From positions 124,001 to 188,000 of the forward strand of contig NZ_FWXS01000004.1 of assembly GCF_900176425.1 (NCBI RefSeq): a DNA stretch of 64,000 nt, read 5' to 3'. The notes beneath the pieces were generated by a model. The model made no database searches, was not told where the DNA came from, and worked only from the letters and a program-made list of their open reading frames with translations. A program made the position numbers and the translations under genes. Position 1 is the first letter of the stretch. The number at the start of each line of letters is the position of its first letter. The stretch is from Moheibacter sediminis (GTDB lineage: Bacteria; Bacteroidota; Bacteroidia; Flavobacteriales; Weeksellaceae). This document shows positions 14,435 through 25,628 of the stretch, in pieces.

Positions 14435-14461
14435 ACATTTATTCCAAGATCAAATTTGATT

Positions 14462-14947
14462 ATGATATTTCCTCCATTTCATTCATTTCCAATTTTAGAA
14501 AATCAAAATATTCTACTTCGTGAAGTTCAACATGAAGATTCAGAATTTATTACAGAAATTTCTTACTATGACGGACAAAAAGCAAATTCAATTGCGCAAG
14601 CGAAAGAAATGAATAACAAAATCAATAAAAATTACAAAGAAGGCGATTCTATACATTGGTTGATTTTGGAAAAAAATACTCATCAAATTGCAGGAACGTG
14701 TGGTTATTATCGTGGATTTACAAATAATAGTGGAGAAATAGGATGCATTTTACTGCCGGAATTTCAAGGCAAAGGAATCATGCAAAATGCACTTCGATTA
14801 ATAATTGATTTTGCAACAAATGAAATGAAGCTAAATAGAATCTGGGCCGCAACATCTATTGAAAACCATCAAGCTATTAAATTGTTCAACCGACTTGGAT
14901 TTCATGAAACGAAAAGTGATGAAAACACTGTAACTTTTGATTTTTAA
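14462..14947 (+). CDS. GNAT-family N-acetyltransferase (RimJ/RimL type)
   Basis: 161 residues from ATG 14462; an in-frame TTG at 14456 is less likely. The pattern LRE at the first strand, GTCGYYRG, then EIGCILLPEFQGKGIMQNAL is the acetyl-CoA-binding motif A (Q-x-x-G-x-G/A variant QGKGIM). It ends with the typical IENHQAIKLFNRLGFHE. The family uses acetyl-CoA to acetylate ribosomal protein N-termini or small amines; the target here is unknown. It follows a strong terminator, so it is likely independently transcribed, and it converges with the VOC gene on the minus strand 18 bases away. Confidence 0.9.
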   Translation: MIFPPFHSFPILENQNILLREVQHEDSEFITEISYYDGQKANSIAQAKEMNNKINKNYKEGDSIHWLILEKNTHQIAGTCGYYRGFTNNSGEIGCILLPEFQGKGIMQNALRLIIDFATNEMKLNRIWAATSIENHQAIKLFNRLGFHETKSDENTVTFDF

Positions 14948-14965
14948 ATGAATTTGAATTCTCTA

Positions 14966-15808
14966 TTATTCAATCGCTTTTTTATAAGCTTCCAAGTCAA
15001 ATTTTTTCATTTTCATTACAGCTTCCATTGCTTTAGATGCTTTGTCAGGATTGACCATTGTTTCTTCTACAATCGAAGGGAATATTTGCCACCACACACC
15101 AAATTTATCCTGAATCCAGCCACACATACTTTCCTTTCCTTCTTTGGCAAAAGCATTCCAGTAAAGGTCGATTTCTTCCTGTGTATTTGCTTCAATTACA
15201 TTTGAAATTCCTTCCGAAAAAGTAAAGTCATGCCCCGTTCCCCCATCCATCGCCATCCACAAATGACCGTTGAGCGAAAACTGTGCATGCATCACATTGC
15301 CTTCCATAGCACCCTCCTGGTATTTTGAAATTCCGTCAGATTTGGAATTGGGAAATAAATCCATGTAAAAGTTCATAGCTTCTTCAGCCTTTCCATTTTG
15401 ATTTTGAGTAAACATAAGTGTAGGAGTAAATTTCTGTCTATGAACATCAGAAAGTTTTCCAAACATCAATTGCCACGAAATCCCGAATTTATCCTGCACC
15501 CAACTGTATTTTTCGCTCCAATCATATTTATCCAAAGGCATCAGGACAAATCCTTCATCTGCAAGTTGACTGTATATTTTATCCAATTCATTTTTATCTT
15601 CCAATACGACCATAAATGAAGTTGAAGGGGTAGGTTTGAATTCCGGGCCGCCATTTAATCCCATGAATTTCTGACCGCTCAGTTCAAAGTTTACAACCAT
15701 TGACGTATCAACTGTCGTTTTACCTTCTCCGAAAACTGAAATGTAAAATTCAGCAGCTTCTTTTGCGTTGCCTTCAAACCAAAGGCATGGGTACATTTTA
15801 TTGTTCAT
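14966..15808 (-). CDS. Tandem VOC (PhnB-like) protein
   Basis: 280 residues from ATG 15808; a TTG two codons upstream overlaps the previous stop. Two PhnB/3-demethylubiquinone-methyltransferase-like VOC domains are fused: residues about 3-120 (YPCLWFEGNAKEAAEFYISV) and about 125-260 (TPTLMFTQNQNGKAEEAMNFY). Each carries the DKFGxxWQ motif (DKFGISWQLMFG and DKFGVWWQIFPS). VOC proteins are metal-dependent lyases, dioxygenases or antibiotic-binding proteins; PhnB-like members have no firm activity. It starts 2 bases after the YdeI-like gene stops, indicating co-transcription. It is the last gene of the VOC/SRPBCC block. Confidence 0.88.
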   Translation of the reverse strand: MNNKMYPCLWFEGNAKEAAEFYISVFGEGKTTVDTSMVVNFELSGQKFMGLNGGPEFKPTPSTSFMVVLEDKNELDKIYSQLADEGFVLMPLDKYDWSEKYSWVQDKFGISWQLMFGKLSDVHRQKFTPTLMFTQNQNGKAEEAMNFYMDLFPNSKSDGISKYQEGAMEGNVMHAQFSLNGHLWMAMDGGTGHDFTFSEGISNVIEANTQEEIDLYWNAFAKEGKESMCGWIQDKFGVWWQIFPSIVEETMVNPDKASKAMEAVMKMKKFDLEAYKKAIE

Positions 15809-15810
15809 AA

Positions 15811-16374
15811 TCAATCTTTTTTATATTTATCGTACAACCCGATTCCTTGTAAAATCATAGGTTTAATTTTTTCGATTCTAGACATTTTTGTTTTTTCTTG
15901 TTTTGCTTCGTCTATGAAAAGGCTGTATTCTTTTTGTTTTCCAGGTATTAATTTTTCAAAGGCAGATTTCAGATTTTCATCCAGATTTAATTCATCTTGT
16001 AATAATTCAGGAACCGAAACTGATTGGAATTTTTTGGCTTTTATTTCTTTTCCTTCCTCAGAATTTTTAATCGCTTCTTTCACATATTCAAGAATTTGTT
16101 TTTCATCAATTTCCTCCATCAAATTAAATCTCCATTGACGCAAAGCTTTTGTTTTTTCTTGTGCGCTAATCAAAACTTTGTAAGGATCAGTGAGGAAAAC
16201 ACCATTGTAAAACCAAAGGGTAAAATAATTTTTGAAACCTACAAACCCCACAATGTTTTTTCCATTATGTGTGTAAACAGTCGTTCCCCACTTGATTGTT
16301 TCAGTCAATTCCGTTTTGTTGAGAATTTTCTGAAGCAATTCCAATTCTTTTCCCCAATGGTTGATTTTATCCAT
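15811..16374 (-). CDS. YdeI/OmdA-family protein with DUF1801 domain
   Basis: 187 residues. Residues about 1-115 are a DUF1801-like domain (ETIKWGTTVYTHNGKNIVGFVGFKNYFTL, core IKWGTTVYTHNGKNIVGF). The C-terminal 60 residues match the bacteriocin-protection YdeI/OmdA type (FEKLIPGKQKEYSLFIDEAKQ, core PGKQKEYSLFIDEAK, then RIEKIKPMILQG). Members are small cytosolic proteins linked to stress or peptide resistance; the biochemical function is unknown. It is packed between the tandem VOC gene (2 bases) and the DinB gene (2 bases), so all three are surely one transcript. Confidence 0.85.
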   Translation of the reverse strand: MDKINHWGKELELLQKILNKTELTETIKWGTTVYTHNGKNIVGFVGFKNYFTLWFYNGVFLTDPYKVLISAQEKTKALRQWRFNLMEEIDEKQILEYVKEAIKNSEEGKEIKAKKFQSVSVPELLQDELNLDENLKSAFEKLIPGKQKEYSLFIDEAKQEKTKMSRIEKIKPMILQGIGLYDKYKKD

Positions 16375-16376
16375 TT

Positions 16377-16991
16377 TTATTTCTTTGGAAAATTCGGATC
16401 ATTTTTCACTTCATCAATTTGGAGCGTATGTCTTGCAGTATGCCCTGCAATGAACAAAAGACTTTGATAAGCATCGGTTGCACCAGCGGGAGAATCGTTG
16501 ATGCGATTTCTCAGCTCGTTGATGTCTGTTTTTTTTATGAAATTAATTAACTCTTTTCTTTGGTTTTTAAAATCTTTCAAAGCCACTTTCGGCTGATTAT
16601 AAATCCCTTTTTTCTGAAGCATTTCAGGTGCCTTGTATTTCTCCGATCTATTGGTCATAAATCCGAGAATATCGTCATCCGAAAGAACCACATCTTTCTT
16701 TCGATCAGGATTTTCGGGTTGTTCCATGTAAGTTTTCAGCATTCCGAAAATCATATTTTCTGTGGCGATGATATGTTCTACACATTGACTCACAGACCAT
16801 TTGTCTTCTGAAGGTTTGAACTGCATTTGCGCCTCGCTCAGTCCGGAAATACTTTTGCTTAAATTATTTTTGGTTTGTTTGTAATAATCCAAAAGAAATT
16901 CTTTGTCGTGAAAGACAAGTTGTTTTTCATCTGTTTGAGCTGAAATGAAATAAGTTGGTAAAAGAAACAGTATTAAAATTACACTTTTCAT
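16377..16991 (-). CDS. DinB-family protein with signal peptide
   Basis: 204 residues. An N-terminal signal peptide (MKSVILILFLLPTYFISAQ) exports it, which is a common variant in Bacteroidota. A DinB_2-like four-helix bundle follows, with the putative metal ligands as His residues in SVSQCVEHIIATENMI and in LLFIAGHTARHTLQIDEV. DinB-superfamily proteins include thiol transferases using bacillithiol or mycothiol and many of unknown role. It overlaps nothing but is 2 bases from the YdeI-like gene downstream and 17 bases from a VOC gene upstream. Activity not predictable. Confidence 0.85.
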   Translation of the reverse strand: MKSVILILFLLPTYFISAQTDEKQLVFHDKEFLLDYYKQTKNNLSKSISGLSEAQMQFKPSEDKWSVSQCVEHIIATENMIFGMLKTYMEQPENPDRKKDVVLSDDDILGFMTNRSEKYKAPEMLQKKGIYNQPKVALKDFKNQRKELINFIKKTDINELRNRINDSPAGATDAYQSLLFIAGHTARHTLQIDEVKNDPNFPKK

Positions 16992-17008
16992 AATGATTTT
17001 TTTTTAAA

Positions 17009-17401
17009 TTAAATTTTAGCAAGTGCAAAAACCGCTCCTGCCGGGTCTTCGATCATAGCATAGAACAAAGTACCTTCTTTGGATTTGTATTCTTTCAATA
17101 ATTTTCCGCCCAATTTGAGCGCGTTTTCCACAGATTCATCTACATTTTCTACGCTTATGTAAGCAACCCATTGTGGCGGAACGCCTGTGTTTGCACCGCG
17201 GCTGTGGCAAATTCCCGCAACTGAATTCCCCTTGGCATCTTTCATCACATAATCCTGATATGCGTTCTCGCCGTCTTTCATGTCCAGTCCTTGCGAAGTC
17301 CAACCGGCAACAGATTGATAAAATTCTCGTAATTCGTCCGCTTTATAAGTTGTCAAATCGCGCCAATTGATGCTTCCCTGCACGTATTTTGGTTTTTCCA
17401 T
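17009..17401 (-). CDS. VOC-family (glyoxalase/bleomycin-resistance fold) protein
   Basis: 130 residues, single VOC domain pair of beta-alpha-beta-beta-beta modules. Visible signatures are ELREFYQSVAGW in the first module, WVAYISVENVDESVENALKLGG in the second and the closing EDPAGAVFALAKI. The family includes glyoxalase I, fosfomycin-resistance enzymes and dioxygenases, but many stand-alone members have unknown substrates. It starts 18 bases after the SRPBCC gene stops and is part of the same minus-strand block. Confidence 0.88.
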   Translation of the reverse strand: MEKPKYVQGSINWRDLTTYKADELREFYQSVAGWTSQGLDMKDGENAYQDYVMKDAKGNSVAGICHSRGANTGVPPQWVAYISVENVDESVENALKLGGKLLKEYKSKEGTLFYAMIEDPAGAVFALAKI

Positions 17402-17419
17402 GTTTAATTGATTTCGAAA

Positions 17420-17863
17420 TTATTCAGAAATTTCTTTCAACTTCTGCAAAGCTTTTGGCCAAGTTGTATCAAAATAATCTAGGTATTCTTCATTGGTGTC
17501 GACTTCCACAGAAACAGTCGTTATTCCGTTATTTTCATCAAAAGAATAATTTTCCAATGCACCCGCCCAGCCTTCAACCTGTGGGCCGCTTGTGATTTCA
17601 TTATCGCCTTCGAGCATTCCGATGTGACGGATGGAAATGAATTTATTAGGAATGTTTTCTGCGATCTCAGCTATCATGCCTCCTTTTTTCCCTTCATGCT
17701 CTCCGGTGAAATAGATTTTATCGCCCTTGTTCCAGCTGCCTTCAAAATCTGAAGTCGGATTGAATTCTGCTGTCCACTGTTTGTAAGTTTCTTTGCCAAT
17801 AATGGTTTCATAAACTTTTGAAACCGGTGCATTGATGTCGATTTTATAATTTGATTTTTTCAT
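17420..17863 (-). CDS. SRPBCC-family (START/Bet v1-like) protein
   Basis: 147 residues. The N-terminal KIDINAPVSKVYETIIGKETYKQW pattern (core INAPVSKVYETIIG) and a C-terminal long helix (TTWPKALQKLKEISE) are hallmarks of the AHSA1/polyketide-cyclase-like SRPBCC fold, a deep hydrophobic pocket around a long helix. Cytosolic, presumably binding a hydrophobic ligand; no catalytic residues can be read. One of four SRPBCC proteins in this block, in a chain with VOC genes either side. Confidence 0.88.
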   Translation of the reverse strand: MKKSNYKIDINAPVSKVYETIIGKETYKQWTAEFNPTSDFEGSWNKGDKIYFTGEHEGKKGGMIAEIAENIPNKFISIRHIGMLEGDNEITSGPQVEGWAGALENYSFDENNGITTVSVEVDTNEEYLDYFDTTWPKALQKLKEISE

Positions 17864-17893
17864 TTGATTGAATTTTAAATGATTAATTTTTAA

Positions 17894-18304
17894 TTATTCT
17901 TCACTTGGAATTTTAGACATATCCATGAAGAAAACCTCCCAGGTATGTCCGTCAAAATCTTCCAATGTTCGTTGCTGCATAAAACCATAATCACGCAGTT
18001 CGGTAGGTTCCGTTCCACCTGCCTGAAGCCCAGATTCCATGATTTTATTCATTTCTTCCACACTCTCTACGGACAATGCAAAAAGTCCGGCTATGTTAGA
18101 TTTTGTATCTGCAATGGGTTTGTTTGTAAAAGTTGAAAATTTCTCATGACTTAACAGCATTACAAAAATGCTGTCGCTCCAAACCATACATTTTCCAGTA
18201 TCGTCTGAAAATTGAGGGTTGTTTTCGAAACCTATCGAAGTATAGAAATCCATTGATTTTTGAATGTCTTTTACTGCTAAATTGATGAAAATTTGTTTTG
18301 TCAT
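17894..18304 (-). CDS. VOC-family protein
   Basis: 136 residues. It begins KQIFINLAVKDIQKSMDFY, the usual opening strand-helix of VOC domains, and ends EDFDGHTWEVFFMDMSKIP with the conserved DGHxWE metal-region motif. It resembles the lactoylglutathione-lyase-like proteins of proteobacterial and Bacteroidota stress clusters. Substrate unknown. It is 30 bases upstream of an SRPBCC gene and 42 bases downstream of a SnoaL-like gene on the same strand. Confidence 0.88.
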   Translation of the reverse strand: MTKQIFINLAVKDIQKSMDFYTSIGFENNPQFSDDTGKCMVWSDSIFVMLLSHEKFSTFTNKPIADTKSNIAGLFALSVESVEEMNKIMESGLQAGGTEPTELRDYGFMQQRTLEDFDGHTWEVFFMDMSKIPSEE

Positions 18305-18346
18305 AATTTTAATATTTTGATGAAATCTGAATGCAGATTCTGTTAT

Positions 18347-18730
18347 TTATTTTGAATTAATTGGATTTAAATGCGAGATTAATTTTTTGATTTTCCCGTT
18401 TTCAAATTCGAATACATCACAAAATGCGAGAAGAATGGGATTTTGATTTTTAGGTTTTGCAAGCACTGTGCCTTCAGCTATCACGACGTTATTTTCTTCC
18501 GTCATTCGGTTCAAAGTAATTTCAGGTTTGCCTTCGAAACCTTCATTTTCAATTTCCGCATCAAATTCCGTTTTCCCTTGTAATTTTCTATGCCCATGGA
18601 TTTCCCAAATTACATCTTCGGTCAGACAGGAAAGAATTTTTTCATGGTCTAACTCATTGAATGCATTCATGTAGCATTCTACTGTATTTTTGTTGGTCAC
18701 CGATTCAACTTTAAGAAATGCGCTCAACAT
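18347..18730 (-). CDS. SnoaL-like/NTF2-fold protein
   Basis: 127 residues from ATG 18730, which overlaps the previous gene by 20 bases; a GTG at 18700 would avoid the overlap and give 117 residues beginning TNKNTVECYMNAFNEL. The sequence NAFNELDHEKILSCLTEDV and the later ALAFCDVFEFENGKIKKL-like C-terminus (here LAFCDVFEFENGKIKKLIS) fit the SnoaL/NTF2 cone fold. These proteins form ligand-binding pockets or small isomerases; no activity can be assigned. The overlap with the SRPBCC gene indicates translational coupling. Confidence 0.82.
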   Translation of the reverse strand: MLSAFLKVESVTNKNTVECYMNAFNELDHEKILSCLTEDVIWEIHGHRKLQGKTEFDAEIENEGFEGKPEITLNRMTEENNVVIAEGTVLAKPKNQNPILLAFCDVFEFENGKIKKLISHLNPINSK

Positions 18731-19130
18731 AATTTTTAAAACTATTCATAATCGCTTGCCAGCCATCTTGCTGCATTTCGATTGGATTTTGATTTTCAGG
18801 ATCAAATGTCGTGGTTACTTTTGTCTGATTTCCGTCCGAAATAAATTCAATAGTAGCATTTCTACCATCGAGCATATTGTAAGATAATTTCTTTCTATCA
18901 ACGATTTCGTCATAAATTGCTTCAAAATCAAATCCAAAACTTCCGTCTTTGGCTTCCATTCTTGCATTGTATTTTCCGCCGACTTTTACATCATTTTCAG
19001 CATGCGGACAACACCAATCTTCCGAAGCCTGGTTCCATTTAGTGATGTGTTGAGGTTGCGTATAGGCATTCCAAACTTTTTCGATGGGAGCCTGAACGTC
19101 AGCGGCTACAGTGATTTTTTGATTTTCCAT
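18711..19130 (-). CDS. AHSA1-type SRPBCC protein
   Basis: 139 residues. ITVAADVQAPIEKVWNAYTQPQHITKWNQAS (core QAPIEKVWNAYTQPQHITKW) is the classic AHSA1 opening, and SEDWCCPHAENDVKVGGKY and a final QDGWQAIMNSFKNYVE long helix complete the fold. Members bind hydrophobic ligands or assist stress responses; function open. It is the first gene after a 107-base gap that carries the second copy of the operator-like element (19211-19240), so a new transcript probably begins here. Confidence 0.88.
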   Translation of the reverse strand: MENQKITVAADVQAPIEKVWNAYTQPQHITKWNQASEDWCCPHAENDVKVGGKYNARMEAKDGSFGFDFEAIYDEIVDRKKLSYNMLDGRNATIEFISDGNQTKVTTTFDPENQNPIEMQQDGWQAIMNSFKNYVERIS

Positions 19131-19210
19131 AATTTTATTATTTCAGGTTTAATTTATACTATAATGTAAAATTATAATTTAGTTAGAAAATTGCAGATGT
19201 CAATTTATGC

Positions 19211-19240
19211 CATTTTGTGGGTGAATTTGTGACAATTTTA
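19211..19240 (+). promoter_or_regulatory. Operator-like element, internal copy
   Basis: CATTTTG (19211-19217) is followed after one base by a segment reading GGGTGA, TTTGTGACAA and TTTTA. It matches the element in the GlxA divergent region, apart from about nine bases missing in the middle and single-base shifts. The core TTGTGACAA is an inverted repeat around a central G. It lies 81 bases before the SRPBCC start at 19130 and touches the DinB stop codon. As in the other copy, a TAnnTTTG box (19239-19246) follows on the plus strand, here pointing into antisense of DinB. Confidence 0.5.
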
Positions 19241-19705
19241 ATTTTGGTTCAAAATCTTTTTTATCAAAACAATTTGCCCTAAATGATAATGGGAATGTTC
19301 AATAATTCCATGGAGGTTTCGATAATAATTGCCGTATTGGTCTTCGAAGAAAATTTCATCCAATTTTTCTTGCGGAAATGTTTCAATTGTGTGGGCTAAA
19401 TTCTCAGCATGAATCCAAAATTCAGTTAAGAAATTTTGCCATTCTTCTTCAGAATTGAACTCCGGCATTTCCCAACTTAATTTATCTTTTGTGGTCAATG
19501 GCTTTCCTTTTAAAAATTCAGCTACTCCGACTGTGTAATAATCTATATGGTAAACCAAAGCCGCAATGGTATTGAAATCGTGAACTTTTGCTGTTGCCTG
19601 TTCCAAATTAATTCCATCCAAAGTTTCTTTGAAATTGACCCAAGTCCAGTTTCCTCCGAAATGGACATCTCTGAATTGTTGGGCTATTTGTTTTGCGATT
19701 TCCAT
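19238..19705 (-). CDS. DinB-like (DUF1572-type) protein
   Basis: 155 residues from ATG 19705, one base past the previous stop; upstream in-frame residues are not needed. Histidines placed as in DinB metal sites are visible in NTIAALVYHIDYYTVGV and in NLHGIIEHSHYHLGQIVLIKK. Unlike the DinB at 16377 it has no signal peptide, so it is cytosolic. Four-helix-bundle members often act as metal-dependent thiol transferases, but this is not established here. It follows the SRPBCC gene at 19707 in the same transcript. Confidence 0.85.
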   Translation of the reverse strand: MEIAKQIAQQFRDVHFGGNWTWVNFKETLDGINLEQATAKVHDFNTIAALVYHIDYYTVGVAEFLKGKPLTTKDKLSWEMPEFNSEEEWQNFLTEFWIHAENLAHTIETFPQEKLDEIFFEDQYGNYYRNLHGIIEHSHYHLGQIVLIKKILNQN

Positions 19706-19706
19706 T

Positions 19707-20147
19707 TTATTTAAGCATATAATCAAACGCGCCTTTTCTCAAATGAATTCCATATTCCAACCAAGCTTTCATACAAGAAAGAAAATTGCCCCAACCTTCG
19801 GTTTGTCCGATTGCCCATTTGATGACTTTTTCATCTGCCTGATAACCTTCTTCGCTGACGCGCACTGTCGTGTTTTTATTCCTGTCTTCTTCCAATTCAA
19901 TTTTTACAATGGAATTCGGGTCCCAATCCAAAATGATCAGTTGATTTGGAATAATTTCTTTTATCTGAACCGGATAACTTCCATCAAATTCAGGAAATTC
20001 CCACATGACTTCTTTTCCTTGCTCCAATCTTCCAGAACCTTTTGAAATAAAATATTGTGACATGATTTCAGGATTAATGATGGCTTCGAAAACTTCGTCA
20101 ATTGGTTTATAAATGGTTATCGCTGCTTTGGATGTGATTTTTCCCAT
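19707..20147 (-). CDS. SRPBCC-family protein
   Basis: 146 residues. KAAITIYKPIDEVFEAIINPEIMSQYF (core YKPIDEVFEAIINPE) opens an AHSA1-type SRPBCC fold, with WEFPEFDGSYPVQIKEI and a C-terminal QTEGWGNFLSCMKAWLEYG helix. It follows an intrinsic terminator (20171-20202), so it either begins a new transcript or is read through at reduced level. The DinB gene starts one base after its stop. Ligand unknown. Confidence 0.87.
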   Translation of the reverse strand: MGKITSKAAITIYKPIDEVFEAIINPEIMSQYFISKGSGRLEQGKEVMWEFPEFDGSYPVQIKEIIPNQLIILDWDPNSIVKIELEEDRNKNTTVRVSEEGYQADEKVIKWAIGQTEGWGNFLSCMKAWLEYGIHLRKGAFDYMLK

Positions 20148-20170
20148 GATTTTATATTTGATTTAATTAA

Positions 20171-20202
20171 AAAAGGAGATAAAAATTCATCTATCTCCTT
20201 TT
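20171..20202 (-). terminator. Terminator inside the VOC/SRPBCC block
   Basis: 11-bp perfect stem AAAAGGAGATA (20171-20181) with TATCTCCTTTT (20192-20202), 10-base loop, followed on the minus strand by TTAATTAAAT. It lies 6 bases past the stop of the PhnB-like gene and ends or attenuates that transcript. Confidence 0.8.
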
Positions 20203-20207
20203 AATTT

Positions 20208-20630
20208 TTAGTCTTGTTGAGGATTTGCACAATTGATCATCCAGCAAACGCCAAATTTATCGGTAAATGAACCGAAATAATCCCCCCAAAACATATCTTC
20301 CATCGGCATTTCAATTTTGCCTCCAGCTGAAAGTCCGTTGAAAATTTTGTCAGCTTCCTCACGACTGTCAGGCGAAACGGAAATGTAATTGTTGTTTCCG
20401 ACGTTTAAAACATGACCTGCGGAAGGCAAGCAATCTGAAGCCATCAGATGCTGGTCTTTTCCGATTGGAAGCGAAACGTGCATCGCTCTGTCTTTTTCAT
20501 TTTCGGGAATTTCCATTCTGGGAACGCTGTCCATTTTCTGAACAAATAATTCTCCGCCAAAAACGGACTGATAAAACTTGAAAGCTTCTTCAGCATTTCC
20601 ATCAAAGTTTAAATAAGGATTTAATTTCAT
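20208..20630 (-). CDS. PhnB-like VOC protein
   Basis: 140 residues, single PhnB-type VOC domain: LNPYLNFDGNAEEAFKFYQSVFGG at the start (core NFDGNAEEAFKFYQSVFGG), AMHVSLPIG and a closing FTDKFGVCWMINC. This matches the family formerly mis-named 3-demethylubiquinone methyltransferase. No catalytic role is established. It is the last gene before a terminator and shares a transcript with DoxX, DUF4199 and DUF1801 genes upstream. Confidence 0.88.
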   Translation of the reverse strand: MKLNPYLNFDGNAEEAFKFYQSVFGGELFVQKMDSVPRMEIPENEKDRAMHVSLPIGKDQHLMASDCLPSAGHVLNVGNNNYISVSPDSREEADKIFNGLSAGGKIEMPMEDMFWGDYFGSFTDKFGVCWMINCANPQQD

Positions 20631-20647
20631 AATAATTTGTTTGATAA

Positions 20648-21022
20648 TTAACTACAAATAAGTTTTTTATATTTTTCACGGTTATCAATGATCATCCAAA
20701 TATTGATCAAAAGCAATACCCCTGCGATTGCCAGACCTTCAGGCATATATACTGCGTTGTGGATAATAATTCCAACCATAACAGGTAATATTACGATTGC
20801 TCCCAATGCTCTTGTTTTGGGAATGATGAATAACAATCCACCAATTAATTCTATAAACCCAATTAAGGGCATCAACCAGACAATAGTTCCAAAAGCTTCG
20901 TTTACTTTTTGCATTTCAGGTTCTATCGGGGGTATGGGCATATAATGTAAGAATTTATCCAATCCGGCGTTGATGAACATCAATCCGAAGAGTGTACAGA
21001 GTATTAATTTTATAATTTTCAT
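20648..21022 (-). CDS. DoxX-family membrane protein
   Basis: 124 residues with four hydrophobic segments and the DoxX opening LCTLFGLMFINAGLDKFLHYMP (core GLMFINAGLDKFLHY), followed by LMPLIGFIELIGGLLFIIPKT. DoxX-like proteins sit in the inner membrane and are associated with redox or thiol stress modules in several bacteria. It is 17 bases from the PhnB-like gene and 3 bases from the DUF4199 gene, so it is co-transcribed with both. Confidence 0.87.
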   Translation of the reverse strand: MKIIKLILCTLFGLMFINAGLDKFLHYMPIPPIEPEMQKVNEAFGTIVWLMPLIGFIELIGGLLFIIPKTRALGAIVILPVMVGIIIHNAVYMPEGLAIAGVLLLINIWMIIDNREKYKKLICS

Positions 21023-21025
21023 AAT

Positions 21026-21517
21026 TTAATTTTTTACAGTTTTCGTTCGTACAAAATAGGCAACTACCAAAGTGGTGATGATTCCCATCATAAAAGAAGC
21101 GATAGTGCTTTGAACGGCATAATTTTTATAATTAAAATTTGCGGTGGCTTCTGTGGTAGTTTTGTAATAACCCAATTCTACCGAACGTTTGATTACATTA
21201 GGGAAATATTCAGGCGAGATGATGTAAGAAATAATCCATTGCGTTAAAGGAGCAAAAATGGTAACAATAACTGTGATGATCATTCCGGAAACGAATCCTT
21301 GTTTGAAATTCATTTGACCATTGTAATAATTTTTCCTGATGTCTTTGAGTGCGAAAACAAATACAGCAATAGCAGGAATCGCATACAAATTGGTAAGATA
21401 CAAATGATAATCAATGTATTTGCCATGTAAACCGGACAGCTTTTCTAAAACCATCCACAGCAGGGACATGATGATGAAAATCAATGCCCACTTCATTTCA
21501 AATTTAAATCGTGCCAT
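21026..21517 (-). CDS. DUF4199 membrane protein
   Basis: 163 residues with four predicted membrane helices (about residues 8-27, 42-60, 77-98 and 135-157). The arrangement and the segment NYYNGQMNFKQGFVSGMIIT (between helices two and three) match DUF4199 proteins, which are frequent in Bacteroidota and of unknown function. Its start overlaps the end of the DUF1801 gene by 14 bases, indicating translational coupling. No enzymatic motif is seen. Confidence 0.82.
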   Translation of the reverse strand: MARFKFEMKWALIFIIMSLLWMVLEKLSGLHGKYIDYHLYLTNLYAIPAIAVFVFALKDIRKNYYNGQMNFKQGFVSGMIITVIVTIFAPLTQWIISYIISPEYFPNVIKRSVELGYYKTTTEATANFNYKNYAVQSTIASFMMGIITTLVVAYFVRTKTVKN

Positions 21518-21929
21518 ATTTTTCTTCTAAAAATTTTATTGTTTCTTTCATCATTTTATCCAGAACATTTAAATCGATATCAGACAATTTATTGACATAA
21601 ATACAAGCTTTTCCCATTTTGAATTTCCCTAAATCTTGCAGCAAATGTTCATGCTCTTCCAATCCTGTAAAAGTGTACAGTGAAATGGCAGCTTTGCGCG
21701 GTGAAAATCCCAATAATGGAGCATCGCCTTCGTGGCCGCTGTCGTATCTGTAATGGTAATTTCCAAATCCTACGATGCTTGGACCGTACATTTTGGGTTC
21801 AAAACCCGATACATTTCGCATGAGTTCGATTAGCTCATAACTGTCTTTCTTTTTCTGTTCGGAATTACTAAATGTTTCGATGAATTCATAAACGTCGGCA
21901 TCGGTTGTTTCGGTTTTATTTTTTGCCAT
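21504..21929 (-). CDS. DUF1801 (YdhG-like) protein
   Basis: 141 residues. LIELMRNVSGFEPKMYGPSI, then IVGFGNYHYRYDSGHEGDAPLLGF-type strand (core GFGNYHYRYDSGHEGD) and FSPRKAAISLYTFTG fit DUF1801. This is a second DUF1801-fold protein in the block, besides the YdeI-type gene at 15811. The family resembles a ligand-binding domain found in iron-related and stress proteins; the function is unknown. It is the first gene after a strong terminator, so it probably has its own promoter in the 64-base gap upstream. Confidence 0.85.
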   Translation of the reverse strand: MAKNKTETTDADVYEFIETFSNSEQKKKDSYELIELMRNVSGFEPKMYGPSIVGFGNYHYRYDSGHEGDAPLLGFSPRKAAISLYTFTGLEEHEHLLQDLGKFKMGKACIYVNKLSDIDLNVLDKMMKETIKFLEEKYGTI

Positions 21930-21952
21930 TTTTTTTAAATTAAATTTTTTAA

Positions 21953-21990
21953 AAAATAAGGGAGAACTGAATTCAATTCTCCCTTATTTT
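21953..21990 (-). terminator. Strong terminator inside the VOC/SRPBCC block
   Basis: 14-bp perfect stem AAAATAAGGGAGAA (21953-21966) with TTCTCCCTTATTTT (21977-21990), 10-base loop, T-rich tail on the minus strand. It lies 3 bases past the VOC stop and isolates the two genes next to the regulator from the rest of the block. Confidence 0.88.
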
Positions 21991-21993
21991 AAA

Positions 21994-22389
21994 CTATTGC
22001 ATGGAAAACAACCCGAACGGATTTCCTTCGCTGTCTACACAAATGGAACAGAAACCAAATTCTCCAATATCCATTTTTGCATGCTGAACTTGCCCGCCGG
22101 CAGCTTCTACTTTCGCAGCTTCTACGGCACAGTCTTCACATGGGAAATAAACCATCGTATTGACGCAAGCGCCGTCGCCTTCTTTGGTTCCGGGCATTTC
22201 GATGAGCGCACCGCTCACACCTTGGTTTTCCGGTGAGGAGAAAAATGACATTTTCATATTTCCGGGAGCTTCGCCTGGCGGCATTGGTGCGTCTGTGAAA
22301 TTAATTCCCAATACAGCGTTGTAAAATTTCTTGGCGCGTTCGATGTCTTTTGCATAAATTTCAAACCAGCAGATGATGTTTTGATTCAT
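21994..22389 (-). CDS. VOC-family protein
   Basis: 131 residues. ICWFEIYAKDIERAKKFYNAVLG is the canonical opening of a two-module VOC domain (core EIYAKDIERAKKFYNAVLG), with NTMVYFPCEDC and a closing GEFGFCSICVDSEGNPFGLF. Proteins of this type are small cytosolic metal-site or ligand-binding proteins of unknown substrate. It ends right at a strong terminator. With the SRPBCC gene upstream it forms the promoter-proximal pair divergent from the GlxA-type regulator. Confidence 0.88.
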   Translation of the reverse strand: MNQNIICWFEIYAKDIERAKKFYNAVLGINFTDAPMPPGEAPGNMKMSFFSSPENQGVSGALIEMPGTKEGDGACVNTMVYFPCEDCAVEAAKVEAAGGQVQHAKMDIGEFGFCSICVDSEGNPFGLFSMQ

Positions 22390-22443
22390 AGTTTTTTATT
22401 TTTTTATTATAGAATTTAGAAATACTTTAAACATCCAACATAA

Positions 22444-22965
22444 TTATTCCTCTAATTGATTTTTGAGATTTTGTAAGCCTTCTTCGAAATCCTTGTCCAT
22501 ATTAAAGAACAAATTCATGAAATTCCACGGATAAGGAGAAGTTCCTTTAACTTCCCATTTGATCAAAGTTTTATCAGCTCCTTGCGCTTCAGTTGACATT
22601 ACGGATTTTGCGGGTCCCATAGTTTCATCAAAGAACAAGTCAGATTTCATGTTGGAGCCGTCTAGGTCTGTGATGACTTGTTTTCCTTTTCCGACCATCC
22701 AATTTTCGCTGCTCCATTTGTAAGTAAATCCAACTGTTCCGTCGGTGCCTTCGTAAGAAGTTTTCATTTCCGGATCCATTTGGTGCCATGTTCCGTATTT
22801 TTCCTGGTTTTTCAGAAATTTTATGTGGTTGTAAACTTCCTGCTGAGGTTTGTTGATGACGATTTCACTCTTTCCGCTAAATTCTTTTGGCGCAAATGCT
22901 GCTCCAATTAGTACGATTGCGACCAACGCCACAATAAAGATTAAGATTCCTTTTAAAATTTTCAT
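22444..22965 (-). CDS. SRPBCC protein with N-terminal membrane anchor
   Basis: 173 residues. A hydrophobic N-terminus (ILKGILIFIVALVAIVLIGA) acts as a membrane anchor or signal. The SRPBCC domain follows: SEIVINKPQQEVYNHIKFLKN (core VINKPQQEVYNHIKFL), GTWHQMDPEMKTSYEGTDG and a long C-terminal helix. This is the polyketide-cyclase-like type that often carries a membrane helix. It is the first gene of the minus-strand block and is divergent from the GlxA-type regulator, with 164 bases and the operator-like element between them. Confidence 0.88.
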   Translation of the reverse strand: MKILKGILIFIVALVAIVLIGAAFAPKEFSGKSEIVINKPQQEVYNHIKFLKNQEKYGTWHQMDPEMKTSYEGTDGTVGFTYKWSSENWMVGKGKQVITDLDGSNMKSDLFFDETMGPAKSVMSTEAQGADKTLIKWEVKGTSPYPWNFMNLFFNMDKDFEEGLQNLKNQLEE

Positions 22966-23072
22966 ATTTTTTTTATTTGTTTAAATAAAGTTAGATAAAA
23001 TTTCAATACCTAATAAATGTCATGTTTTTAATTAATTCAAAATTAAACTTAAATCCAAAAAGAAAAGTGGCT

Positions 23073-23119
23073 CATTTTGCTAAATGATGGGGTGATTTGT
23101 GACAAATTTTATAAGTTTG
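23073..23119 (+). promoter_or_regulatory. Operator-like element and promoter box of the GlxA-type regulator
   Basis: CATTTTG (23073-23079), then GGGTGATTTGTGACAAAT (23090-23107) and TTTTA. The core ATTTGT-G-ACAAAT is a 13-base perfect inverted repeat. TAAGTTTG (23112-23119) is a Bacteroidota -7 box directly after it, 11 bases before the regulator ATG, and no TTG lies at the -33 spacing. The element therefore sits where an activator or autorepressor would act on the regulator gene and is also upstream of the divergent SRPBCC gene. A second copy lies at 19211-19240. Confidence 0.5.
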
Positions 23120-23129
23120 AATAAATATT

Positions 23130-24110
23130 TTGAATATGCAATTAGCACTTTTGGTTACCAAAAATCACCGTTTATTGAGTCTTGTAGCGGCTTTGGATTT
23201 GTTTGAAATGGTTAATAGGATGTTGGTGGAGTCAGGGAAAGAGGCAGGTTTGGAATTGTCTTTTTTAGGACTTTCACCCAATTCTCCTTTCGGGGAAAAT
23301 TTAAATCATATCAATTATTACCAAATAAATGAATCAATTCCGAAACTGGATATGATTGTAGTTCCGGCTTTTGCCAATCGGGAAATGCCCAATAATATCG
23401 CAATGAATCAGGAATTCATAGGTTTTCTAAGGCAGCAATATGAAAAAGGGTGTGAACTAGCGAGTTTGTGCACCGGTTCTTTTTTGCTGGCGGCAAGCGG
23501 ATTGCTGAATGGTAAAGCTGCTACAACGCATGTGGATGCGGCAGAAGGTTTTTATTATGCTTTTCCGTTGGTGGATTTGCAGCCGCATGCAGTCATCACG
23601 AGTGATTCAAATATTTATACGAGCGGCGGTGCTACGAGCAGTTTTCATTTGAAACTTTTTATCGTTCAGAAATTTTTCGGGAGAGAATTGGCACTTCAGA
23701 TAGCGAAAGCATTTGCGATTGATATGGACAGGGATAATCAATTGTATTTTGATCAGTTTAAACCAAGTTTAGCTGAAGGTGATGATTTGGTAAGAAAAAT
23801 TCAATTGATGATTAATGAGCGTTATTCTGAAATCAGAAATGTGGAAGAAGCGATGGAGGAAGTGCCGTCGAGCCGTCGAAATATCATTAGAAGATTTAAG
23901 CAGGCAACTGGAATCACGCCGATTCGCTATTTGCAAAAAACTAAAATCGAAGCTGCAAAGAATTTATTGGAAACCACCAATAAAGATATTTTGGATGTGA
24001 TGGTTTGCTCCGGATACAACGATATGAAAAATTTCCGTCAATTGTTTAAAACCTTTACAGGACTAACTCCGAAAAGCTATCGTGAAAAATATGGGATGAG
24101 GCTGGGTTAG
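23130..24110 (+). CDS. GlxA-family transcriptional regulator (DJ-1/PfpI plus AraC HTH)
   Basis: 326 residues. Residues about 4-180 are a class I glutamine-amidotransferase-like DJ-1/PfpI domain with the nucleophile-elbow region ELASLCTGSFLLAASGLLNG (Cys at about 113). Residues about 225-322 are an AraC-type double helix-turn-helix (SRRNIIRRFKQATGITPIRY, then the second-HTH DMKNFRQLFKTFTGLTPKSYR). GlxA-type regulators sense small molecules through the DJ-1 domain and bind near promoters. It is divergent from the block of small VOC/SRPBCC/DinB genes, and its promoter overlaps the operator-like element. It is the likely controller; the inducer is unknown. It overlaps the convergent lipoprotein gene by 4 bases. 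Confidence 0.93.
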   Translation: MNMQLALLVTKNHRLLSLVAALDLFEMVNRMLVESGKEAGLELSFLGLSPNSPFGENLNHINYYQINESIPKLDMIVVPAFANREMPNNIAMNQEFIGFLRQQYEKGCELASLCTGSFLLAASGLLNGKAATTHVDAAEGFYYAFPLVDLQPHAVITSDSNIYTSGGATSSFHLKLFIVQKFFGRELALQIAKAFAIDMDRDNQLYFDQFKPSLAEGDDLVRKIQLMINERYSEIRNVEEAMEEVPSSRRNIIRRFKQATGITPIRYLQKTKIEAAKNLLETTNKDILDVMVCSGYNDMKNFRQLFKTFTGLTPKSYREKYGMRLG

Positions 24111-24796
24111 TTTACATAATGATCTACACAATTACTAATTATTTCAGGTATTCCTGATATCTGAACTCTTGCTGACATGCTGAAACTTCCTGTTTCACCA
24201 TTGTTAAACTGATAGCTTAATCCGTCAACATTTCCATCTGTGAAATGATGAAAATTAATATAATTAAATGCTCCAGGACAATTTAATCCGTAATGTCTTG
24301 TGAAATAAATAGTGCCACTTTTACCTGGCGCTCCAATCAATTTTGCTTTTGGAACAATGCCATCTGTTGGTGTATAATAAGTTTTTTCAAGTGTAATTTC
24401 CAAAACGGGAACTTCTCTTTCTACATTTACCCGAATTTCTTTTTGTTCTGATGTTGATGTTTTATCTGATAAATCATGTACTATAGCGTGATATCTTTCA
24501 TTACCATAAGCGTTTGCACCATAATTTAATTCAAATTCATAAGGTTGTTCCAAATCCGTAAACCGCAGATTTTCCAATTCATCATAAAATTCAACTTTTG
24601 AAATTCCTGTATCGTCTGAAACATTGGCTATAATTTTAGTCGAACCGGGTTGTATGATGTAAGGATTGGTAACAACTAATTCAATCTTAGGAAATTCTGA
24701 ATCGTTTGAATTATTATCACTGTCATCATTATTGCATGATAGAAATAGAAACAATAAACAAATAATTGATAATTTTAAATATGCTTTTGATTTCAT
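24107..24796 (-). CDS. Predicted lipoprotein with Ig-like domain
   Basis: 229 residues. MKSKAYLKLSIICLLFLFLSC is a lipoprotein signal with lipobox LFLSC and Cys about 21, followed by an asparagine- and aspartate-rich linker typical of outer-membrane lipoproteins in this phylum. Residues about 38-130 look like a bacterial Ig-like beta-sandwich (ANVSDDTGISKVEFYDELEN). The rest is not recognised and ends in CVDHYVN. The 5' leader (24799-24847) holds a 10-bp inverted repeat TATTTTCATT/AATGAAAATA that may shape the mRNA. Function unknown. Confidence 0.78.
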   Translation of the reverse strand: MKSKAYLKLSIICLLFLFLSCNNDDSDNNSNDSEFPKIELVVTNPYIIQPGSTKIIANVSDDTGISKVEFYDELENLRFTDLEQPYEFELNYGANAYGNERYHAIVHDLSDKTSTSEQKEIRVNVEREVPVLEITLEKTYYTPTDGIVPKAKLIGAPGKSGTIYFTRHYGLNCPGAFNYINFHHFTDGNVDGLSYQFNNGETGSFSMSARVQISGIPEIISNCVDHYVN

Positions 24797-24893: not shown

Positions 24894-25628
24894 TTAAAAC
24901 TGCTCAAACCTGAAATTCTCTCCGAGATAAACACGTCTTACATCTTTGTCATTGGCGAGTTCTTCCGGGGTTCCTTCTTTTAGAATTTTTCCTTCGAACA
25001 TGATGTAGGTTTTGTCAGTAATCGCCAAAGTTTGAGAAACGTTGTGATCGGTAATGAGTATTCCGATGTTTTTGTCTTTCAGTGAACGGACAATTTTCTG
25101 AATGTCTTCCACCGCAATTGGATCTACCCCTGCAAAAGGTTCGTCCAATAAGATAAATTTCGGTTCGGTAGCGAGGCAGCGCGCGATTTCGGTACGGCGT
25201 CTTTCACCCCCGGAAAGCAAATCTCCGCGATTTTTCCGTACGTGTTCCAAACTGAATTCTTCGATTAATTCGTCAGTTTTTCTTTGTTGCTGCGTTTTGG
25301 AAAGTTTTGTAAATTGTAGAACGGATTTGATGTTGTCTTCTACCGAAAGTTTTCTGAAAACCGATGCTTCCTGCGCCAAATAACCGATTCCTTTCTGTGC
25401 ACGTTTGTACATCGCATCGTTGGTAATATCCAGTTTATCGAGTGAAACCTTTCCACTGGTTGCTTTTACTAAACCGACAATCATGTAGAACGAAGTGGTT
25501 TTTCCGGCACCGTTTGGGCCGAGCAAACCGATGATTTCTCCTTGTTCCACCTGAAATGAAACATTTTTCACTACGTGTTTTTTACCGTAATCTTTTATCA
25601 GATTTTCTCCTTTCAGTACAATTCCCAT
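24894..25628 (-). CDS. lptB: LPS export ABC transporter ATPase
   Basis: 244 residues, the size of LptB. Walker [12 protein letters not shown] (about 34-44), ABC signature [17 protein letters not shown], Walker [14 protein letters not shown] and the switch His in ITDHNV are all present. The [11 protein letters not shown] variant of the signature is diagnostic of LptB. It powers LptFG in moving lipopolysaccharide from the inner membrane to the outer leaflet through the Lpt bridge. The other lpt genes are not in this window. Start ATG 25628; the nearest upstream gene on this strand ends at 25671, and the intervening gap is short. Confidence 0.95.

What the first reader, a model, noticed from the sequence alone, without database searches (positions are those of the whole stretch)
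14966..24110. GlxA-type regulator faces a 16-gene block of VOC, SRPBCC, DinB, DUF1801, SnoaL and DoxX genes
Sixteen small genes with ligand-binding or thiol/metal-type folds run in one direction over 8 kb, most a few bases apart. They comprise four SRPBCC proteins, five VOC proteins, two DinB-like, two DUF1801-fold, one SnoaL-like, DoxX and DUF4199. A single DJ-1/AraC regulator is divergent from them. Such sets are known around ECF sigma factors in other phyla, but here a GlxA sensor is used. None of the members has an obvious substrate. This could be a detoxification or small-molecule modification system with one unknown inducer.
Basis: partly seen in the sequence, partly recalled or inferred. 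Interest (0 to 1): 0.72.

Follow-up and report, generated by a model that had tools for sequence, protein, structure and literature searches.

The report
GlxA regulator facing small-fold gene cassette
Sixteen small ligand-binding-type genes stand in two groups, each behind a copy of the same DNA motif beside a divergent sensor-regulator, and the same kind of regulator, motif and gene set recurs in many members of one bacterial phylum, so this is probably one inducible stress or toxin response rather than a random collection.

Summary
In detail: 16 co-directional genes (14966-22965, minus strand) of VOC, SRPBCC, DinB, DUF1801, SnoaL, DoxX and DUF4199 folds face a divergent DJ-1/AraC regulator. 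It is not a local accident. Of 74 other loci with a related regulator, 65 have such genes nearby; 0 of 20 distant DJ-1/AraC loci do. Kinds of fold are conserved, not genes or order. A candidate operator (GACA direct repeats 21-22 bp apart around GGG) is found in 63 of 75 upstream regions and 0 of 20 controls; the window's own region misses that cut-off. On the cassette side a TAnnTTTG box lies 43-45 nt from GGG at 36 of 60 regulator sites, with only one box elsewhere. This genome has exactly two perfect copies of a related 17-base core, one before each half of the block, so the block is probably two units. In other genomes, 19 of 27 examined sites away from listed regulators precede genes of the same folds. 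Best reading: a regulon against toxic or reactive small molecules. Inducer, binding and activities are untested.

The parts
23130..24110 (+). GlxA-type regulator: DJ-1/PfpI domain plus AraC HTH (likely ATG start 23136)
   Evidence: Cys114 and His134 invariant in 75 of 75, and in 20 of 20 controls
23089..23105 (+). operator core 1 (GGGGTGATTTGTGACAA) between regulator and g01; first half-site degenerate
   Evidence: cassette-side TAATTTTG at 43 nt, regulator-side TAAGTTTG at 23 nt
19219..19235 (+). operator core 2 (GGGTGAATTTGTGACAA) in the g08/g09 gap, upstream of g09; imperfect box TAATTTTA at 44 nt
22444..22965 (-). g01 SRPBCC-type, N-terminal membrane segment by eye
   Evidence: (below Pfam cut-off)
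21994..22389 (-). g02 VOC; sequence relative of Rv0577; 72-95% identical in five relatives
21504..21929 (-). g03 DUF1801
21026..21517 (-). g04 DUF4199
20648..21022 (-). g05 DoxX
20208..20630 (-). g06 PhnB-type VOC
19707..20147 (-). g07 SRPBCC (AHSA1)
19238..19726 (-). g08 DinB_2; last gene of proposed unit 1
18711..19130 (-). g09 SRPBCC (AHSA1); first gene of proposed unit 2
18347..18730 (-). g10 SnoaL_2
17894..18304 (-). g11 VOC
17420..17863 (-). g12 SRPBCC (AHSA1)
17009..17401 (-). g13 VOC (Glyoxalase_6)
16377..16991 (-). g14 DinB_2, apparent signal peptide by eye
15811..16374 (-). g15 DUF1801 plus OmdA
14966..15814 (-). g16 double PhnB-type VOC (3-dmu-9_3-mt)

Best explanation
The locus is a regulon module. 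The regulator senses a small molecule through its DJ-1-type domain, binds direct-repeat operators as an AraC-type protein, and switches on two transcription units, g01-g08 and g09-g16, each with its own operator. The operator lies upstream of the cassette promoter at a preferred distance, where AraC-type activators work, and its other end falls near the regulator's own promoter, so autorepression is likely. The products bind, modify or remove toxic or reactive small molecules (DinB-type thiol transferases; VOC, SRPBCC and SnoaL ligand binders; DoxX membrane redox proteins). Gene content turns over while regulator and operator stay. Seen in sequence: gene set, operator motif, spacing, recurrence. 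Inferred: binding, activation, autorepression, small-molecule sensing, detoxification.
For: Recurrence: cassette-type genes near 65 of 74 related regulators and 0 of 20 controls. Pfam tally of the first two divergent ORFs (138): Glyoxalase 47, AHSA1 27, 3-dmu-9_3-mt 21, DinB_2 13, RibD_C 12; first two downstream ORFs of the same loci (143): Glyoxalase 6, none of the others among the 25 of 142 families shown. Operator profile: 63 of 75 regions against 0 of 20; split-half models 26 of 43 and 35 of 43 regions not trained on. Box TAnnTTTG at 43-45 nt in 36 of 60 regulator sites that have GGG, one other occurrence; 23 of 24 occurrences without the 12 close loci L049-L060. Own genome: exactly two zero-mismatch cores in 3.23 Mb, both in this block; window shuffles expect 0.07 at one mismatch. 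Sites away from listed regulators: 19 of 27 examined precede a gene of the same folds. The DoxX-type operator is in 14 of the 16 order-level genomes whose regulator scores 280 bits or more and in 0 of the other 379. The seven cassette-less Parapedobacter loci have no operator hit. Function hints: AlkD-type, MATE and DUF899 genes in related cassettes.
Against: No expression or binding data. The window's own upstream region is one of the 12 of 75 not reached by the profile; the two window sites score E 0.089 and 0.58, and site 1 has no two-half-site match at one mismatch. 24 of 60 regulator sites lack the exact box at 43-45 nt, and only 1 of 7 other operator copies with GGG has it; with looser boxes the preference weakens (25 of 31 for TAnnTTT[GA], 34 of 73 for TAnnTT). 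The operator-plus-box pattern is at noise level in the window's family (42 matches in 316 genomes, three at regulator loci, and more than 50 control hits by my count). Many loci are close copies, so counts are not independent events. The 20 controls come from one family. BshC is in 40 of 40 genomes tested, including genus members without the regulator, and the DJ-1 Cys is in all controls, so neither discriminates. No substrate is known for any block protein.
Confidence: 0.65

Rival explanations
1. The regulator binds the operator but mainly controls itself; the cassette genes are expressed otherwise and cluster there because the site tolerates insertions.
For: A TAnnTTTG box also lies 22-28 nt on the regulator's side at 20 of 60 regulator sites, with one other occurrence. 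Block homologues exist in G001 and G002 beside LptB without regulator or operator hit.
Against: A second core stands before g09, where no plus-strand regulator exists; sites elsewhere precede the same kinds of gene; the cassette-side spacing is tighter.
Confidence: 0.13
2. The module serves catabolism or modification of one specific metabolite rather than defence.
For: GlxA-type regulators with known ligands control catabolism (GbdR, choline metabolism: NCBIfam hit at 103 bits, under its cut-off of 480). 3-dmu-9_3-mt, RibD_C and AHSA1 folds could be enzymes.
Against: Content differs between loci; the same operator stands before single genes or pairs of DoxX, VOC, DinB or RibD_C type.
Confidence: 0.15
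3. A narrower form of the best explanation: the module answers DNA damage or genotoxic antibiotics, as the WYL regulator SiwR does with its DinB genes in mycobacteria.
For: SiwR upregulates adjacent DinB-superfamily genes on H2O2 or zeocin, and some species have a Glyoxalase_6-family gene there (PMC10693628, passages); AlkD-type genes occur in related cassettes (4 of 138 ORFs).
Against: No DNA-repair family among the 16 block proteins; the sensor domain is DJ-1, with no WYL hit.
Confidence: 0.25

Closest known systems
SiwR module of Mycobacterium smegmatis (PMC10693628, passages read)
   Same: An activator facing oppositely oriented DinB-superfamily genes, a Glyoxalase_6-family gene in some species, a binding site in the intergenic region.
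   Different: Sensor is WYL, not DJ-1/AraC; site is a 19-bp imperfect palindrome, not 21-22-bp direct repeats; two target genes, not 16; other phylum.
ECF41 and ECF42 sigma-factor loci (PMC3426412 and PMC8999054, passages read)
   Same: Single regulators beside small genes of unclear substrate; two relatives here carry GlxA with YCII- and ECF42-like genes (by eye).
   Different: No sigma gene found in the block; ECF41 targets are COE genes; regulator family and DNA signal differ.
GlxA/FtrA/GbdR-type DJ-1-AraC regulators (NCBIfam)
   Same: Same domain order; DJ-1 fold.
   Different: Far below the FtrA cut-off (150 of 425 bits); targets differ from the named members as far as recalled.

Membership tests
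GlxA-type (DJ-1/PfpI plus AraC HTH) regulators | N-terminal DJ-1/PfpI domain and C-terminal HTH_18 | tested here: met
   both above Pfam cut-offs; DJ-1 fold matches, 3gra_A at E 2.8e-09
GlxA-type (DJ-1/PfpI plus AraC HTH) regulators | nucleophile-elbow Cys kept | tested here: met
   Cys114 in 75 of 75 relatives and 20 of 20 controls
FtrA equivalog | NCBIfam NF006902 cut-off 425 bits | tested here: not met
   150 bits
AraC-type direct-repeat operator | two half-sites about two helical turns apart next to a promoter | tested here: inconclusive
   clear in relatives (20 of 75 at zero, 60 of 75 at one mismatch; shuffles 0.95 and 19.9); in the window only the second half-site of site 1 is good, site 2 reads GCCA-22-GACA
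AraC-type direct-repeat operator | regulator binds it | not testable with these tools
   needs EMSA or footprinting
ECF41/ECF42 systems | ECF sigma gene at the locus | tested here: not met
   no sigma domain in the 19 proteins of 14456-24796 scanned
SiwR-type WYL module | WYL-domain regulator | tested here: not met
   only HTH_18, HTH_AraC and DJ-1_PfpI hits
Bacillithiol transferase (YfiT equivalog) | NCBIfam NF009807 cut-off 160 bits | tested here: not met
   g14: 19.6 bits; g08 was not scanned against NCBIfam
Known anti-phage defence genes | PADLOC model match | tested here: not met
   0 matches for 10 of the 17 proteins; the other 7 were not scanned

The most novel reading that the evidence does not exclude
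Bacteroidota keep an exchangeable library of small binding and thiol-transfer proteins under one DJ-1/AraC sensor type and one phylum-wide operator: a chemical-defence regulon in which sensor and DNA address are fixed while the gene payload is swapped, so that any gene acquiring the operator joins the response.
Probability: 0.35. Interest if true: 0.8.

Novelty: new variant of a known kind. Interest (0 to 1): 0.6.

Why it matters
VOC, SRPBCC, DinB, DUF1801, SnoaL and DoxX genes are common and mostly without known function. A shared operator with a preferred promoter distance would turn many such genes into one predicted regulon across a phylum, would give a sequence rule for finding members away from the regulator, and reduces the function question to a testable one: what induces this promoter.

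Tried and rejected
Sigma-70 promoter and terminator scans gave no more than shuffles and were dropped for the Bacteroidota -7 box (TAnnTTTG, recalled, from no call). Viral contigs: no match to the regulator. PADLOC: nothing for 10 proteins. PHROGs: no hit for the 4 cassette proteins scanned. Plasmids: one distant Ideonella hit. BshC was tested as a marker of thiol-dependent function and does not discriminate. The operator-plus-box pattern is noise in the window's family outside regulator loci (42 matches in 39 of 316 genomes; more than 50 control hits by my own count). VOC metal ligands: by eye the usual first-strand His/Glu looks replaced (W8 in g02, invariant in 6 sequences); not tested by structure. 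Solved-structure search of g14 found nothing. Literature, in the held open-access library only: no paper found that combines GlxA or a regulator with these families; 0 papers; one (PMC4360819, listing only, no AHSA1); one (PMC11925935, listing only, no DinB); 418 papers, 8 listed, 'GlxA family' in none of the 8, the rest unseen. Searches (107 papers, 20 listed; 574 papers, 20 listed) gave mostly unrelated listings.
Full report
What is there. Sixteen ORFs run on the minus strand from 22965 to 14966, facing a plus-strand regulator at 23130-24110. Pfam confirms the folds: five VOC (g16 double), four SRPBCC (g01 only below the cut-off), two DinB_2, two DUF1801, SnoaL_2, DoxX, DUF4199. The regulator has a DJ-1/PfpI domain and an AraC HTH. 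Its AlphaFold2 model (mean pLDDT 83.4, pTM 0.61) matches DJ-1-fold structures such as isocyanide hydratase and a Pseudomonas putida AraC-family regulator. GC of the block (0.36) equals its surroundings. The genome has no name in the tools; the closest named relative is an uncultured Moheibacter (L069: regulator 77%, g01 71%, g02 95%, g03 89% identical), and that contig has the same number and length as contig 307 of G005, a genome of the window's genus.

Is the set conserved? In a phylum-wide sample 74 of 395 genomes have a regulator match at E 1e-50 or better. I read 74 further loci, picked by regulator score and by room on the contig, not by gene content: 20 from family and order searches, 15 from a scan for close relatives in named contigs, 39 new ones from the phylum sample (a part of the matches listed). 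All score at least 199 BLAST bits to the window regulator. With profiles seeded from the block, 65 of 74 have at least one cassette-type gene within 8 kb upstream or 3 kb downstream, 57 at least two; 61 have one among the first four divergent genes; 0 of 20 distant DJ-1/AraC loci have any. The nine without are seven Parapedobacter loci, L101 and L110. The 20 controls are all from the window's family, 17 from one genus. Since the profiles were seeded from this block, I repeated the test with Pfam on the first two divergent ORFs: 47 of 138 Glyoxalase, 27 AHSA1, 21 3-dmu-9_3-mt, 13 DinB_2, 12 RibD_C, against 6 Glyoxalase and none of the others among the 25 families shown for 143 downstream ORFs. 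Single members scanned with Pfam add AlkD-type, DUF899, MATE and an RNA-polymerase-alpha-CTD-like protein (grouping). Kinds are conserved while genes and order vary.

The DNA motif. Intergenic regions of close relatives share GGGG..ATTT..GACAA. Across the phylum the pattern is a direct repeat of GACA half-sites 21-22 bp apart with GGG between: zero mismatches in 20 of 75 regions (0.95 expected from shuffles), one or fewer in 60 (19.9 expected); controls 0 and 7 of 20, with 0.2 and 4.4 expected. A profile from 64 sites, chosen as the best-scoring site of each region, finds 63 of 75 regions and 0 of 20 controls; the 12 missed are L062, L066, L068, the seven Parapedobacter loci, L099 and the window itself. 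Split-half models find 26 of 43 and 35 of 43 regions they were not trained on; 11 regions are in both sets. In this genome a 17-base core written from site 1 and its close relatives has exactly two perfect matches: 23089-23105 and 19219-19235 (47 more at one or two mismatches elsewhere). Within the window 0.07 matches are expected at one mismatch, and 1 of 100 shuffles had two. The second site was not used to write the core. It fills the only gap over 64 bp inside the block, just upstream of g09. The general profile scores the two window sites weakly (E 0.089 and 0.58).

Distance to the promoter. On the cassette side the Bacteroidota -7 box TAnnTTTG (consensus recalled) lies 43-45 nt from GGG at 36 of 60 regulator sites, with one box elsewhere in 130 nt; of 7 other operator copies with GGG only one has it. 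One box in all was found in matching stretches of the 20 controls. Without the 12 close loci L049-L060, 23 of 24 boxes are at 43-45 nt; looser boxes weaken this (25 of 31, 34 of 73). Window site 1 has TAATTTTG at 43 nt and site 2 the imperfect TAATTTTA at 44. On the regulator side the box lies at 22-28 nt at 20 of 60 sites, one elsewhere. This suggests activation of the cassette and occlusion of the regulator's promoter (inference).

Further sites. Seven extra operator copies in L115 (two), L090, L094, L081 and L068 (two) have E from 0.00012 to 0.75 and lie at SRPBCC, VOC, DUF1801, RibD_C-like and DUF899-like genes; one in L068 is almost 12 kb from its regulator. A genome-wide operator-plus-box pattern in 59 genomes with the regulator gives 55 matches in 31 genomes, against 10 by my count for the reversed control. 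By coordinates, 27 are at regulators listed, and 28 are not. Of these 28, 27 were examined and one at a contig end was not. By script rule 18 of 27 precede a cassette-type gene within 20-41 nt of the box: 11 DoxX_2-type (one of them, L148, scanned with Pfam, the others by likeness), 2 SRPBCC, 2 VOC, 1 PhnB-type, 1 DinB, 1 RibD_C; L146 adds a DoxX_2 gene, making 19. One precedes a MATE-like gene (by eye); seven give nothing assignable. The 11 DoxX cases are orthologous copies in one genus (g35, Flavobacterium by inference). L165 has a regulator-like ORF nearby, and other unlisted paralogues may lie outside the 3 kb read, so 'away from the regulator' is provisional. In the order-level sample the DoxX-type operator is in 14 of 395 genomes, all 14 among the 16 whose regulator scores 280 bits or more (taken to be the same draw). 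Three of the 14 (G503, G614, G515) had not been used to write the pattern; relatedness of these genomes confounds this. In the window's family the loose pattern is at noise level.

History. The regulator tree puts the Moheibacter pair with Sinomicrobium (Flavobacteriaceae) and Siphonobacter (Cytophagaceae) at 100/98 support, which suggests horizontal transfer, though two of these are metagenome-assembled. Of six genus genomes two have the regulator. At the same place beside LptB, G001 has homologues of g01, g13, g14 and g15 and G002 of g01 and g12, without regulator or operator hit; G003 has none in the stretch read; G004 and G005 were not read there.

What it does. Nothing here shows a substrate. 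DinB and DoxX folds (thiol transfer, membrane redox; recalled), AlkD-type and MATE genes in sister cassettes, and the Cys/His of the DJ-1 domain (also in controls) point to reactive or toxic small molecules. BshC is in 40 of 40 genomes tested, which allows but does not support bacillithiol use here. The closest tested analogue, SiwR, upregulates adjacent DinB genes on H2O2 or zeocin (PMC10693628, passages).

Verdict. The finding is real and larger than stated: it has a candidate operator, probably two units, and relatives across the phylum. The novelty lies in the regulator-operator-payload architecture, not in a new protein family.

Noticed in passing
L080:11136-12770 and L082:11041-12658: A YCII-like (DGPF-type) gene and an ECF42-like sigma gene, named by eye, follow the GlxA regulator directly, joining two regulator types at one locus.
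   Followed up: partly
L073, L074, L076-L079, L083 (Parapedobacter): Regulator orthologues (52-56% identical) without cassette or operator hit, each followed by a gene of about 180 aa; their target is unknown.
   Followed up: no
window 24894-25628; L178; L179: The site beside LptB in this genus holds cassette-type genes in varying number, with or without the regulator.
   Followed up: partly
L049-L060, end of the cassette: A gene of 409-450 aa (SerB/ACT-like by eye) directly follows the cassette in 12 of 12 g35 loci.
   Followed up: no
window 14456-14947: A GNAT acetyltransferase gene sits tail-to-tail with the end of the block.
   Followed up: no
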